Positions 407 through 7,261 of a stretch of DNA of 39,991 nucleotides are shown in pieces. A model generated the notes under the pieces. The model worked only from the letters and a program-made list of their open reading frames with translations, searched no databases and was not told where the DNA came from. Every line of letters starts with the position of its first letter. Within the stretch, counting starts at the first letter, position 1. Location of the stretch: contig SCSP01000104.1 in NCBI GenBank assembly GCA_004297845.1, forward strand, positions 1-39,991, read 5' to 3'. This DNA comes from Bacteroidota bacterium. Lineage in GTDB: Bacteria > Bacteroidota > Bacteroidia > Palsa-948. Both the position numbers and the translations under genes were made by a program.

Positions 407-1738
407 ATGTTATTTCCTAAATCTTCAAGTTCCGATTTAAAGCTCTATCGCATATTACTGCTCGTTGGCGGAGTTTCCTATTTCCTTTTTTGGTTTATTT
501 TAAAAAGCATTGAGCCCGACAGTTATGACCCGATCTTAGGAAGGGGAGCGATATCCCTTGCGATCCTCCTGATATTTACCCTGACATATTCAGCTCAATT
601 TTTTCGAGACTATGTTGTTATTTTATCCTACGTTATGTCACACATTCTTACTTATTATTATGTATTTCTTCTTGCCAATAATTTTTATTCCTATACTTTT
701 TCGATAGGCATGATGACCATTTTATTTGGAACAGCTGTGATTTTTAAAGACCCCTATTCTTTGCTGCTTTTCCTTACTCTGTGCATTGCTTCTGTAGGTC
801 TGGGATATTTATTTGTTGAATTTCCTGCGGTTCCGCCCCTTCTATATATGAGCATTTTGATCACTGCCTCGGTTATTGCATTTTTATCCATGAGTATACG
901 TTTTAATATTCAGAAAGAACTGGATGCCAAAAATAAAAACCTACAGCAGGTTTATGACGAAATGAACACACAAAGAAAACTTGTTGAGATGAAGCATCTT
1001 GACATAACAGATAGTATTATATATGCGAAAAAGATTCAATTTTCGATAATACCGGAAAAAGACGGATTAAAAGATTTTATACGAGATTCTTTTATCTATT
1101 ACAGGGTGAAAGACATAGTAAGCGGTGATTTTTACTGGTATCATAAAAAAGAAGATGAACTGTATATCGCTGCGGTGGATTGTACGGGCCACGGAGTGCC
1201 GGGAGCGCTTGTCTCCATGATAGGAATTACACTGCTTAAGCAAACTATTGACCATCAGCACATAGTCCAGCCCGGTGAAATTCTTTCCAACATGCAGAAA
1301 GAGATATATTCCTTTCTTCAACGCGGTAGCAGCGATGGAATGGAAATCTCCCTTTGTTCCGTAAACCATGAGAAAAAAATATTGTCCTATGCAGGCGCCA
1401 TGATGAAATTAATTATGGTACGCGATGGAAAACTGACTGAAATAAAAGGAGATCGCTCATCCATCAGCCGTAACACTTCATTTGAAGTTGCTTTTACAAA
1501 TCATACTATTAAATTTGAGAGCGGTGATTCTTTTTACATTTTTACAGACGGATATTGCGATCAGTTTGGAGGTGAAAAGAAGAAGAAATTCATGTTCAAG
1601 AGATTTGAAAAACTGCTAACCGACATCCACCACCTGACAATGAGAGAACAGAAATCTATGCTCGATTCCACCTATAAAAACTGGAAAGGAGATCTTGAAC
1701 AGGTAGATGACGTCCTTATAATTGGCTTCAAGTTTTAA
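407..1738 (+). CDS. Membrane-anchored SpoIIE-family (PP2C-like) serine/threonine phosphatase
   Basis: A 443-residue protein. The first ~165 residues hold about six hydrophobic membrane segments. A polar, probably coiled-coil linker (about 168-195) follows, then a cytoplasmic PP2C/SpoIIE domain. Phosphatase landmarks are visible: VSGDFYW at 238-244, the metal-binding DCTGHGVPG at 258-266, TDG at 380-382 and a final DD at 434-435. The family dephosphorylates Ser/Thr residues using two Mn/Mg ions, often on anti-sigma-factor antagonists. No HAMP, GAF or response-regulator domain is present, so the membrane region is the likely sensor; its signal is unknown. No partner kinase or STAS-domain gene is visible nearby. 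The ATG start is preceded by an AT-rich spacer without a clear Shine-Dalgarno sequence. Family assignment is secure; target and signal are unknown. Confidence 0.9.
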   Translation: MLFPKSSSSDLKLYRILLLVGGVSYFLFWFILKSIEPDSYDPILGRGAISLAILLIFTLTYSAQFFRDYVVILSYVMSHILTYYYVFLLANNFYSYTFSIGMMTILFGTAVIFKDPYSLLLFLTLCIASVGLGYLFVEFPAVPPLLYMSILITASVIAFLSMSIRFNIQKELDAKNKNLQQVYDEMNTQRKLVEMKHLDITDSIIYAKKIQFSIIPEKDGLKDFIRDSFIYYRVKDIVSGDFYWYHKKEDELYIAAVDCTGHGVPGALVSMIGITLLKQTIDHQHIVQPGEILSNMQKEIYSFLQRGSSDGMEISLCSVNHEKKILSYAGAMMKLIMVRDGKLTEIKGDRSSISRNTSFEVAFTNHTIKFESGDSFYIFTDGYCDQFGGEKKKKFMFKRFEKLLTDIHHLTMREQKSMLDSTYKNWKGDLEQVDDVLIIGFKF

Positions 1739-1815: not shown

Positions 1816-1914
1816 ACAGAAAACCTGGGGGCGTCCAGACCGTAGTGCCTGGACTGAGATGAAACCCGTATAACCCAATCGAGATAATGCCTGCGAAGGG
1901 AAAGTGAAGGTTCT
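1816..1914 (+). promoter_or_regulatory. TPP (thiamine pyrophosphate) riboswitch
   Basis: Conserved TPP-aptamer blocks occur in the right order and spacing: GGGGGC (from 1827), CTGAGAT with the pyrimidine-sensing core CTGAGA (1853-1858), ACCC twice (1864-1867 and 1873-1876), GATAATGC (1883-1890) and GCGAAGGGA (1893-1901). AACCT at 1822-1826 can pair with AGGTT at 1908-1912 to close helix P1. It lies 85 bases before thiS on the same strand, which is where a TPP riboswitch is expected. No terminator-like hairpin plus U tract follows; the space between aptamer and thiS is filled by a palindromic repeat (1942-1996). Control at translation initiation is therefore more likely than transcription termination, but this is inference. 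Confidence 0.95.
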
Positions 1915-1941
1915 TCCTCAATTTCTCCTCCGAGTTTTCGC

Positions 1942-1999: not shown

Positions 2000-2200
2000 A
2001 TGAAATTATTGATCAACTCCGAACTCAAACAATTTTCCGGAAAGAACATTTCCGAACTGGTGCAGTCATTGAACATGACCAGCATCAATGGAATTGCTTT
2101 AGCCGTGAACGAAAAAGTAGTTCCGAAGAATGATTGGGAGAAATTTGAACTGAATAATCATGACAAAATTTTAATCATCAAAGCTGCACAAGGCGGATAG
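2000..2200 (+). CDS. thiS: Sulfur carrier protein ThiS
   Basis: A 66-residue ubiquitin-fold (beta-grasp) protein ending in the diagnostic Gly-Gly, the terminus that ThiF adenylates and converts to a thiocarboxylate. It then delivers sulfur to ThiG for the thiazole ring of thiamine. The family size is 65-70 residues, matching a start at ATG 2000. A GTG start at 1985 would add MKSVV from the flanking repeat and is less likely. The gene follows the TPP riboswitch and so is the first gene of the thiamine locus. The expected partners thiF, thiG and thiH are not in this window, so ThiS must be served by genes elsewhere. The stop codon touches the next palindromic repeat (2200-2287). Confidence 0.93.
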   Translation: MKLLINSELKQFSGKNISELVQSLNMTSINGIALAVNEKVVPKNDWEKFELNNHDKILIIKAAQGG

Positions 2201-2325: not shown

Positions 2326-5253
2326 ATGGGAATATTATATTACAAAGACCTTGATTTCAAAAATGTCAGTCAGAAATTTTTTCAGATACTGGAACATTTG
2401 AAAAACGGCAACTTCGCTGCGGCTGAAGTAAAAAAGATGCCCGAAACAAACCTCTATCGGGCTAAATTAGATTACAGCAGTCGCCTCATCTTCCGGCTTG
2501 CCAAATACCATAATCAAACCTACTTGTTGCTGCTGGAAATTATCAACAATCACGATTATAGCAAATCAAAATTTCTGCGTGGAGTTGCCATTGATGAGAA
2601 TAAACTTCTCCCATTACAAAATATTTCGGCCGTTGATTCCAAAGAAATTCTTACACTTCCATACCTGAATCCCAAACAAAAACATTTTTATTTTCTCAAT
2701 AAAATTATCTCCTTTGATGATGAACAGCAAGCAACACTGCATCTCCCGCCTCCTCTTATTCTCATTGGTTCTGCCGGAAGCGGGAAAACGGCTCTCGCAT
2801 TGGAAAAAATAAAATTACTGTCTGGCAATATACTTTATGTTACCCTGTCTCCTTATCTCGCTGAACATGCTGCACATATATATTATTCCAACAACTACGA
2901 AAATGAAAAACAGGAAATAGACTTTCTTTCTTTCAAGGAGTTTTTAGAAACCATCCGCATTCCTGAAGGGAAAAAAATGGAGTTCAGAGCATTTGAACAG
3001 TGGTTTTTACCGCATCGCCATCACTCCGGGATAAAAGATACGCATAAATTATTTGAAGAGTTTAGCGGAGTTGTTACAGGATATGCTGTTGACAAGGAAT
3101 TTCTCAGCAGAGAGGATTATGCTAATCTCGGTATCAAACAATCAATTTTTCTTAATGAAGAACGAAATCAAGTGTATGATTTGTTTGAAAAATATTTACG
3201 GTTTCTCAAGGAAAAGAACTATTACGACATCAATATGGTGGCGAATCAATGGGCAAAATTATGTCAGCCCTGTTACGATTTTGTCATTGTTGATGAAGTG
3301 CAGGACTACACGAACATTCAGCTTTTTCTGATTCTTAAATCACTAAAATTATCCGGAAATTTTATTCTATGCGGTGATTCCAATCAAATTGTTCACCCCA
3401 ACTTTTTTTCGTGGAGCAAAGTAAAAACGATGTTTTACCATCATCTCCGCGAAAGCAATATAACCCGCATTCTTACCACCAATTACCGCAATTCTCCGCA
3501 AGTAACCGAGATTGCAAATAAGCTGTTAAAAATCAAAAATGCACGCTTCGGGTCAATTGACCGCGAAAGCACTTATTTAATTCAATCCGCATCGGCACGC
3601 AGCGGAGAGGCAATACTGCTGGAAGAAACCGACAAAGTGAAAACAGAATTTAATCAGAAGACACGTCAGTCCACTCAGTTTGCCGTATTGGTCATGCGCA
3701 ACGAAGACAAAGTGGAAGCCGCAAAATTTTTCAATACTCCGTTGCTTTTTTCGGTGCAGGAAGCAAAAGGGTTGGAATACGAAAATATTCTGCTTTATAA
3801 TTTCGTCAGTGAAAATGATAAAGTATTTCGTGAAATCACTTCCGGCATCACCCCACAGGACGTAAATCAGGGAGAAATAAATTATTCCCGTACAAGCGAT
3901 AAAACCGACAAATCGCTGGAAGCATATAAGTTTTATATCAACTCGTTGTTTGTGGCAATGACGCGCGCCATCGGCAATCTTTATATCATTGAAAAAAATC
4001 ACAAGCAGGAATTGTTGTCATTGCTTGAAATCAATGTAACAAGTCAACAACTCCATTTGCAGCAGCAAATTTCATCAAAAGACGAATGGCAGCGAGAAGC
4101 GCAACGATTAGAAAAACAGGGACGCACAGAACAGGCGGAGCTTATCCGCAAAACGATTCTTGGCACTCAGCCCGTTCCCTGGCGGGTGATTACTAAGGGG
4201 GAGTTAGGAAATCTTAAACTGGAAGCGCTCAATCCTGAAACGTTTAACAAAAAAGCAAAAGACATCCTCTTTGATTATGCACTCATTTATGGCGATGCGG
4301 ATATTATGCAAAAACTCGTTACGCTGAACTACAAACGCGCTGAGCATGCAGAAACAGAACGCCCCTCATTGCTGCGAAGAAATTTTGTGAATTATGTTGT
4401 TGACAATCCAAAGACTATTATGCCTTTGATTAATAAATATGGAGTGGATTTCAGAAATGAATTTAATCAAACTCCTTTAATGATTGCCTCATGGACGGGA
4501 GGAATTAACATCACTAATTATTTACTCGCTCTTGGCGCAAAAACAGAACTTACCGATAATTTCGGAAAGAACGCTTTGCAAACCGCACTTTTACAAACCT
4601 ATATGTCTCAAGACTATGTAAAAAATAAAATTGGAAAAATTTACCCTCTTGTAGTTACTGAAAGTGTGAATGTAAAAGTGGATAATCACCTTGTGAAAAT
4701 AAATAATCACAAGTCGGAATACCAACTCCTCAACCTGTTGATAGCCACACAAAAAGAATTAATAAAAACCGGAGAAGCAGACAGGTCATATGGCTTTACT
4801 TCAAGTGAAATCGTAGAAATCGTTGAAAATTTTCCTGATAATGTGCTTCCATCCTATCGCAAAAAACAGCAATATATAAGCGCAGTGCTCGCCAGAAATG
4901 AAGTGTCGAGAGAAGTTGCGTACAATAAAAAATTATTTATGCGTCTGGAACGGGGATATTATGTGCTTAATCCTGAATTAGAAATACAAATCAACGATCA
5001 GTGGTTGAATATTTACGAGTTGATGCAAACCGAAAAAATGACTCCTGAACAAAATAACAAAATGATAAAAATGCGACTGGAGAAACTCATTCAATCCCTT
5101 GTGGAACGTGAAAAACAGATTAATGAGGCTATGAACAAAGAAAAAAATAAAAACAACTGGAATAATGAGAAACTATCCGAAATGAGAAAAGATTTATTTT
5201 CAGTAAAAAAAGAAGCTGAAAAAATAATTGAGAAAATATCGGGATTAGAATAG
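2326..5253 (+). CDS. UvrD/Rep-like SF1 helicase with RelE/ParE-like N-terminus and C-terminal ankyrin-like repeats
   Basis: 975 residues in three parts. Residues ~1-90 resemble the RelE/ParE toxin fold (YRAKLDYSSRLIFRL, then a strand-rich stretch ending NNHDY). Residues ~100-580 carry the SF1 helicase motifs: Walker A GSAGSGKT near 148, Walker B VDEVQD near 322, GDSNQI near 350, NYRNSPQ near 386, QEAKGLEYE near 478 and VAMTRA near 543. These are features of an ATP-driven 3'-5' DNA translocase. Residues ~640-770 include an ankyrin-like unit (NQTPLMIASWTGG...NYLLALGA). The last ~70 residues are charged and likely coiled coil. The gene splits thiS from thiC and is flanked upstream by a palindromic element, suggesting insertion into the thiamine locus. 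It has no biosynthetic link to thiamine. DNA repair or phage defence are possible roles; neither is shown by the sequence. Confidence 0.85.
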   Translation: MGILYYKDLDFKNVSQKFFQILEHLKNGNFAAAEVKKMPETNLYRAKLDYSSRLIFRLAKYHNQTYLLLLEIINNHDYSKSKFLRGVAIDENKLLPLQNISAVDSKEILTLPYLNPKQKHFYFLNKIISFDDEQQATLHLPPPLILIGSAGSGKTALALEKIKLLSGNILYVTLSPYLAEHAAHIYYSNNYENEKQEIDFLSFKEFLETIRIPEGKKMEFRAFEQWFLPHRHHSGIKDTHKLFEEFSGVVTGYAVDKEFLSREDYANLGIKQSIFLNEERNQVYDLFEKYLRFLKEKNYYDINMVANQWAKLCQPCYDFVIVDEVQDYTNIQLFLILKSLKLSGNFILCGDSNQIVHPNFFSWSKVKTMFYHHLRESNITRILTTNYRNSPQVTEIANKLLKIKNARFGSIDRESTYLIQSASARSGEAILLEETDKVKTEFNQKTRQSTQFAVLVMRNEDKVEAAKFFNTPLLFSVQEAKGLEYENILLYNFVSENDKVFREITSGITPQDVNQGEINYSRTSDKTDKSLEAYKFYINSLFVAMTRAIGNLYIIEKNHKQELLSLLEINVTSQQLHLQQQISSKDEWQREAQRLEKQGRTEQAELIRKTILGTQPVPWRVITKGELGNLKLEALNPETFNKKAKDILFDYALIYGDADIMQKLVTLNYKRAEHAETERPSLLRRNFVNYVVDNPKTIMPLINKYGVDFRNEFNQTPLMIASWTGGINITNYLLALGAKTELTDNFGKNALQTALLQTYMSQDYVKNKIGKIYPLVVTESVNVKVDNHLVKINNHKSEYQLLNLLIATQKELIKTGEADRSYGFTSSEIVEIVENFPDNVLPSYRKKQQYISAVLARNEVSREVAYNKKLFMRLERGYYVLNPELEIQINDQWLNIYELMQTEKMTPEQNNKMIKMRLEKLIQSLVEREKQINEAMNKEKNKNNWNNEKLSEMRKDLFSVKKEAEKIIEKISGLE

Positions 5254-5305: not shown

Positions 5306-7261
<1,956 letters not shown>

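What the first reader, a model, noticed from the sequence alone, without database searches (positions are those of the whole stretch)
2326..5253. Helicase with toxin-like N-terminus and ankyrin-like repeats inserted between thiS and thiC
The protein joins a RelE/ParE-like fold, a complete SF1 helicase and ankyrin-like repeats, and interrupts an otherwise metabolic operon. Fusion of a toxin-like domain to a DNA translocase, plus a protein-interaction repeat, fits a stress or anti-phage effector. It may also be an uncharacterised repair protein. Its position behind a TPP riboswitch would, oddly, place it under thiamine control.
Basis: partly seen in the sequence, partly recalled or inferred. Interest (0 to 1): 0.6.

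Follow-up and report, generated by a model that had tools for sequence, protein, structure and literature searches.

The report
YoeB-like RNase fused to helicase
A single gene that fuses an RNA-cutting toxin fold to a DNA/RNA motor and a protein-binding tail has landed inside a vitamin B1 operon; it belongs to a widespread, wandering and unstudied bacterial protein family that is probably a self-contained alarm or suicide device, though this has not been tested.

Summary
One 975-aa ORF (2326-5253) lies between thiS and thiC, behind a TPP riboswitch. Residues 1-90 fold like YoeB/RelE toxins (AlphaFold2 model, Foldseek top hits YoeB/YafQ-type). They keep counterparts of YoeB's catalytic residues: D/E34 in 47 of 49 relatives, and K/R47, R53, H76 and Y78 in all 49. 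Residues 131-560 are a complete SF1 helicase. Then come a helical solenoid with true ankyrin repeats and a conserved C-terminal domain. This exact architecture is a coherent family: at least 542 relatives in one scan, full length from Bacteroidota to Deinococcota, and on large plasmids including Shigella ones. No paper found in the library describes it.

It is a wandering single gene. Sister species have riboswitch-thiS-thiC without it. It occurs in 2 of 295 genomes of its class. No neighbour recurs in 76 loci, none of 106 other loci carries thi genes, and no antitoxin travels with it. So thiamine control is an accident of insertion.

Defence is plausible but not shown: most neighbourhoods are not defence islands and enrichment is modest. 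Best reading: a self-inhibited RNase-helicase, acting like Schlafen-11 or fused toxin-antitoxins, released when the motor meets foreign or damaged nucleic acid.

The parts
2326..5253 (+). Whole gene, 975 aa: YoeB-like domain + SF1 helicase + ankyrin solenoid + C-terminal domain + coiled coil
   Evidence: (ORF)
2326..2595 (+). Residues 1-90: YoeB/RelE-fold domain; candidate active-site residues E34, K47, R53, H76, Y78
   Evidence: fold; conservation; register; YoeB catalytic residues from PMC3814384
2716..4005 (+). Residues 131-560: SF1 (UvrD/PcrA-like) helicase; motif I GSAGSGKT at 148-155, DEVQD 323-327, GDSNQ 350-354, KGLEY 481-485, TRA 546-548
4408..4596 (+). Residues 695-757: ankyrin repeats inside a longer helical solenoid (about 642-776)
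4714..5010 (+). Residues 797-895: conserved C-terminal alpha/beta domain, possibly winged-helix (inferred from helices followed by two hairpins; no family match)
5026..5250 (+). Residues 901-975: variable coiled-coil tail
1817..1918 (+). TPP riboswitch of the thi operon (sub-threshold score); context only
2000..2200 (+). thiS, left neighbour at the insertion site; context only
5315..7261 (+). thiC, right neighbour at the insertion site; context only

Best explanation
A self-contained, self-inhibited RNase-helicase carried as an accessory gene that moves between genomes. Shown: the architecture, the YoeB fold (by model), conservation of the catalytic-type residues and of all helicase motifs, single-gene mobility, and lack of an antitoxin or partner gene. 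Inferred: in the resting protein the YoeB-like domain is held in check by the rest of the chain. The SF1 motor loads on abnormal nucleic acid (invading DNA, stalled forks or stalled mRNA), while the ankyrin/C-terminal part recognises a protein or anchors the complex. ATP-driven rearrangement then frees the YoeB-like domain, which cuts mRNA at ribosomes and stops translation, limiting the invader (abortive-infection logic). It would work like Schlafen-11 (RNase + SF1 helicase) or fused toxin-antitoxins of the CapRel type.
For: YoeB fold. Residues aligned to YoeB E46/R59/R65/H83 are kept as D/E 47 of 49, K/R 49 of 49, R 49 of 49, H 49 of 49, with Y78 49 of 49 (roles in YoeB from PMC3814384). All 78 full-length relatives of the genome scan keep the RelE core and Walker A, and 77 keep DE-QD, so the fusion is under joint selection. 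No recurrent neighbour in 76 loci. Patchy: 2 of 295 in its class, 24 of 61 within one other genus, absent from all 6 sister species. Empty site riboswitch-thiS-thiC in sister species. Carried on plasmids of Shigella, Escherichia, Piscirickettsia, Methylosinus, Deinococcus, Polymorphobacter and Thermus. The tree puts a Bacteroidota genus beside an alphaproteobacterium with 100% support. Modest excess of defence-model hits nearby. The Schlafen group 3 helicase profile matches 26 of 37 members.
Against: No activity, toxicity or phage data. Profile-profile comparison with YoeB is weak (hhalign probability 2.4%, E 0.02), although it gives the expected register. His76 was matched to His83 by its place on the last strand, not by a program. 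Most loci are not defence islands. In one genus the gene sits in a few stable chromosomal spots beside housekeeping genes, as a vertically kept gene would. Self-inhibition is pure inference: no coordinates or interface scores were available.
Confidence: 0.45

Rival explanations
1. An accessory repair or replication-conflict helicase. The YoeB-fold domain only binds RNA, ribosomes or DNA and directs the motor; nothing is killed.
For: Closest solved structures are PcrA, UvrD, FBH1, and HelD of RNA polymerase. It sits in ordinary chromosomal neighbourhoods and is kept at stable loci in one genus.
Against: The patchy, mobile distribution and strict conservation of catalytic-type residues H76, R53 and Y78 are more than a binding role needs.
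Confidence: 0.27
2. A fused toxin-antitoxin or addiction gene that stabilises plasmids and islands: the chain itself contains the antidote, and loss of the gene is punished.
For: Toxin fold, repeated presence on large plasmids, no separate antitoxin.
Against: A single fused protein leaves no longer-lived toxin after gene loss unless the chain is processed. The helicase core is the best conserved part, which addiction would not require.
Confidence: 0.13
3. A ribosome or mRNA quality-control factor: the YoeB-like domain enters the A site of stalled ribosomes and the SF1 motor clears or cuts the mRNA, a housekeeping-type benefit without suicide.
For: YoeB-type domains act in the ribosomal A site (PMC3814384). 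Viral SF1 RNA helicase and Schlafen helicase profiles match.
Against: Such a factor should be widespread within clades, not present in 2 of 295 genomes of the class.
Confidence: 0.1
4. A functional part of thiamine biosynthesis under TPP control.
For: Same strand, downstream of riboswitch and thiS, no promoter match in front of it.
Against: Sister species have the operon without it; no thi gene lies near any of 106 other loci.
Confidence: 0.02

Closest known systems
YoeB/RelE (BECR-fold) type II toxins
   Same: Fold of residues 1-90, order of strands, Glu/Asp-Arg/Lys-Arg-His pattern of the active site
   Different: No antitoxin gene, fused to a 900-residue helicase chain, not matched by any YoeB/RelE family model, one long helix instead of two before the sheet
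UvrD/PcrA/Rep SF1A helicases
   Same: All SF1 motifs and fold; best PDB hits of the full model
   Different: No large 2B insert apparent between 379 and 560; RelE-fold N-terminus; ankyrin C-terminus; not an orthologue (NCBIfam uvrD/pcrA scores about 34 or less against cutoffs above 900)
Schlafen (SLFN11-type) proteins
   Same: Endoribonuclease at the N-terminus and SF1 helicase in one chain; SLFN11 senses ssDNA and blocks translation (PMC11615386); helicase profile PF09848 matches 26 of 37 members
   Different: RNase fold differs (SLFN core versus BECR); no ankyrin repeats in Schlafens (from memory); analogy in logic, not a shown homologue over the whole chain
Fused toxin-antitoxins such as CapRel and the multidomain BECR toxins of Gerdes 2025 (PMC11980606)
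   Same: Single-chain, toxin-fold, possible self-inhibition and phage trigger
   Different: That survey's main text names no helicase, UvrD or ankyrin fusion
GajB of Gabija
   Same: UvrD-like helicase; best PADLOC match (31.8 bits)
   Different: No GajA partner, different domains, weak and local similarity over the helicase only

Membership tests
YoeB/RelE BECR-fold RNase domain | BECR fold (beta-alpha-beta-beta-beta) | tested here: met
   AlphaFold2 and Foldseek, YoeB on top
YoeB/RelE BECR-fold RNase domain | General base Glu46, Arg59, Arg65, general acid His83 (PMC3814384) | tested here: met
   Counterparts D/E34 47 of 49, K/R47 49 of 49, R53 49 of 49, H76 49 of 49; register of the first three from hhalign, His by strand position (manual)
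YoeB/RelE BECR-fold RNase domain | Sequence match to a YoeB/RelE family model | tested here: not met
   No Pfam or NCBIfam hit for residues 1-130 or 1-145; hhalign probability 2.4%
YoeB/RelE BECR-fold RNase domain | Ribosome-dependent mRNA cleavage | not testable with these tools
   Needs a bench assay
Type II toxin-antitoxin module | Adjacent cognate antitoxin gene | tested here: not met
   No recurrent neighbour in 76 loci
SF1 helicase | Motifs I, Ia, II, III, IV, V, VI | tested here: met
   Conserved in A1/A3
Ankyrin-repeat protein | Ankyrin repeat above curated cutoff | tested here: met
   Ank_5 29.6 bits, cutoff 27; Ank_2 in 37 of 37 members
Gabija (GajAB) | GajA OLD nuclease partner gene | tested here: not met
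   Flanking genes in the window are thiS and thiC; no recurrent neighbour in the family
Known anti-phage defence system | Full-length match to a PADLOC protein | tested here: not met
   Only local helicase and ankyrin hits of 32 bits or less
Defence-island gene | Clear enrichment of defence genes around homologues | tested here: inconclusive
   152 versus 17 redundant models near versus control, distinct proteins estimated; few in nine isolate loci
Schlafen | SLFN-core RNase domain plus SF1 helicase | tested here: not met
   N-terminus is BECR; only the helicase profile matches

The most novel reading that the evidence does not exclude
A widespread, undescribed class of single-gene bacterial immune effectors in which a YoeB-type ribosome-directed RNase is switched on by its own SF1 helicase: a bacterial counterpart of Schlafen-11, moving between phyla and also carried on large enterobacterial plasmids.
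Probability: 0.35. Interest if true: 0.85.

Novelty: new variant of a known kind. Interest (0 to 1): 0.6.

Why it matters
A toxin-type RNase permanently coupled to a DNA/RNA motor in one chain, kept together across many phyla, would be a direct sensor-effector link between nucleic-acid disturbance and translation shut-off. Each domain has a clear active site (H76/R53, K154), so the idea is testable with a handful of mutants. It is also an annotation gap: hundreds of genomes carry it, and annotated records call it 'AAA family ATPase', 'UvrD-helicase domain' or 'ankyrin repeat' protein with no hint of the toxin fold.

Tried and rejected
Thiamine-linked function: rejected. A dedicated partner: an HD-domain gene follows the helicase in two contexts of one genus, but it is present in 48 of 61 genomes there, against 24 for the helicase, so it is a resident gene. 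Transposon or integron boundaries of the insertion: only chance-level short repeats at the edges; no tRNA in the window. Phage origin: no match in phage records; two IMG/VR hits, one beside a Mu-like repressor and transposase where the gene may be host flank. Single-sequence genome scan: patterns too rare, nothing found, solved by using an alignment. Sequence-profile search of the N-terminus against PDB sequences: nothing. Viral structure library with the full model: only generic helicases. Literature: no paper found for the fusion. Eukaryotic TRANK1 (TPR + ankyrin + UvrD-like) came to mind from memory as a possible relative and was not tested beyond a paper search.

Full report
What is there. 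The ORF at 2326-5253 (+) encodes 975 aa. It lies between thiS (2000-2200) and thiC (5315-7261), downstream of a TPP riboswitch at 1817-1918 that scores below Rfam's gathering line (45.1 bits, E 1.3e-7). Three sister species have riboswitches of 68-74 bits at the same place.

N-terminus. No family model recognises residues 1-145. An alignment of 49 relatives (A2) gave an AlphaFold2 model with pLDDT 88.4: strand 2-6, helix 12-26, strands 44-47, 52-61 and 64-74. Against the PDB its best matches are YoeB (6n90, E 9.8e-4; 8yxv, annotated only as a toxin-antitoxin complex, next; 7v6w, 7v5y, 2a6r), then YafQ, HP0892 and, weaker, HigB and ParE2. In YoeB, Glu46 is the general base, His83 the general acid, and Arg59, Arg65 and Tyr84 also serve catalysis (PMC3814384). 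A profile comparison with seven bona fide YoeB sequences (A6) aligns E34 with Glu46, K47 with Arg59 and R53 with Arg65, but with low confidence (probability 2.4%, E 0.02). His76 sits where His83 sits, at the end of the last strand (my reading). In the family, position 34 is D or E in 47 of 49, 47 is K or R in 49 of 49, and R45, R53, E71, H76 and Y78 are invariant. ParE gyrase poisons lack essential catalytic residues of BECR RNases (PMC11980606), so this conservation favours an RNase over a ParE-type function. Activity is not shown.

Helicase and tail. Motif I GSAGSGKT, DEVQD, GDSNQ, the KGLEY motif and TRA are near-invariant. The full model (pLDDT 85.5, pTM 0.80) matches PcrA, UvrD, FBH1 and HelD. 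Pfam's Schlafen group 3 helicase model matches 26 of 37 members. A helical solenoid follows at about 642-776; its second half has ankyrin repeats above cutoff. A conserved domain at about 797-895 (helices, then two hairpins) may be a winged helix (inference), followed by a variable coiled coil. Mean pairwise identity is highest in the helicase core (0.58-0.63), 0.50 in the N-domain, 0.33-0.39 in the solenoid and 0.12 in the tail. A slow core with a fast repeat region fits a motor with a diversifying recognition surface, but relaxed constraint would look the same.

The family. An alignment-based scan of genome contigs found at least 542 relatives; the 80 kept span Bacteroidota, Pseudomonadota, Lentisphaerota, Kiritimatiellota, Verrucomicrobiota, Nitrospirota, Thermodesulfobacteriota and Acidobacteriota. 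Of these, 78 are full length; all 78 keep the N-terminal motif and Walker A. Plasmid records add Shigella (101), Escherichia (13), Piscirickettsia (10), Methylosinus, Deinococcus, Polymorphobacter and Thermus. A distant Cetobacterium protein shares the RelE-helicase part, but its C-terminus looks TPR-like by eye, suggesting that RelE + SF1 is the old core and the repeat tail is exchangeable.

How it moves. In the window's genus none of six sister genomes has it. Three of them show thiS followed directly by thiC with a gap of roughly 50-110 bases. It occurs in 2 of 295 genomes of the class, and in 24 of 61 of a distant Bacteroidota genus at several sites. That genus' copies group with an alphaproteobacterial plasmid copy at 100% support, away from other Bacteroidota. 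No neighbour recurs across 76 loci, no thi gene lies near any of 106 other loci, and no short flanking repeats stand out. Hence a solitary mobile gene, and an accidental place in the thi operon. No Bacteroidota-type promoter match lies before it, so here it may indeed be read from the riboswitch-controlled transcript (inference).

Is it defence? The 136 nearest neighbours match 152 PADLOC models at 1e-12, against 17 for 136 proteins from random Bacteroidota regions. Models are redundant and only 25 were listed, so I estimate at least 12 against about 6 distinct proteins. The control comes from other taxa than much of the test set. Nine isolate loci of about 22 kb each show few convincing defence genes. 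So the association is modest and the verdict is inconclusive. The gene itself has no full-length PADLOC match.

How it probably works. A toxin-fold RNase without antitoxin, fused to a motor and a recognition tail, must be controlled within the chain. The closest working analogy is Schlafen-11, an antiviral RNase with an SF1 helicase that recognises ssDNA and targets translation (PMC11615386, abstract), with fused toxin-antitoxins such as CapRel as a second. I put 0.45 on that reading; the rivals are a repair helicase (0.27), addiction (0.13) and ribosome quality control (0.10).

Limits. No biochemical evidence; the literature library is open-access only; genome sampling is uneven; no inter-domain confidence was available. 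The Shigella and Escherichia plasmid copies were named from the hit table only and not fetched.

Noticed in passing
window 1817-1918: The TPP riboswitch scores only 45 bits here against 68-74 in three sister species, so it may be drifting since the insertion downstream of thiS.
   Followed up: partly
window 407-1738; L050, L052: A SpoIIE-type phosphatase gene lies upstream of the thi operon; in two sister genomes a SpoIIE gene is directly followed by thiC with no thiS or riboswitch found, so the operon start has been rearranged more than once.
   Followed up: partly
L135 2056-10814: IMG/VR contig where a family member (41% identity) lies just beyond the repressor of a Mu-like phage with transposase and transposition protein; it may be phage cargo or host flank.
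   Followed up: partly
plasmid hits H10-H70: A full-length homologue (42% over 905 aa) is on 101 Shigella and 13 Escherichia plasmid records, mostly large, often annotated only as UvrD-helicase domain or hypothetical protein. Not fetched.
   Followed up: no
L029 7860-10718: Distant Cetobacterium relative (26% over 629 aa) keeps the RelE-like core but seems to have a TPR-like C-terminus, preceded by a sigma-factor-like HTH gene.
   Followed up: partly
L028 12001-14766: The Thermus plasmid copy lacks about ten residues of helicase motif III (QIVHPNFFSW) and is probably impaired.
   Followed up: no
window 5464-5530 and 5840-5950: thiC contains two in-frame stretches that resemble each other ('PLSPRRGVGGE' and 'PLSQGRGVGGE'), apparently a small repeat inserted in the coding sequence.
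   Followed up: no
L051, L053, L054: Flavo-1 RNA follows thiC in three sister genomes; none reached threshold in the window.
   Followed up: no
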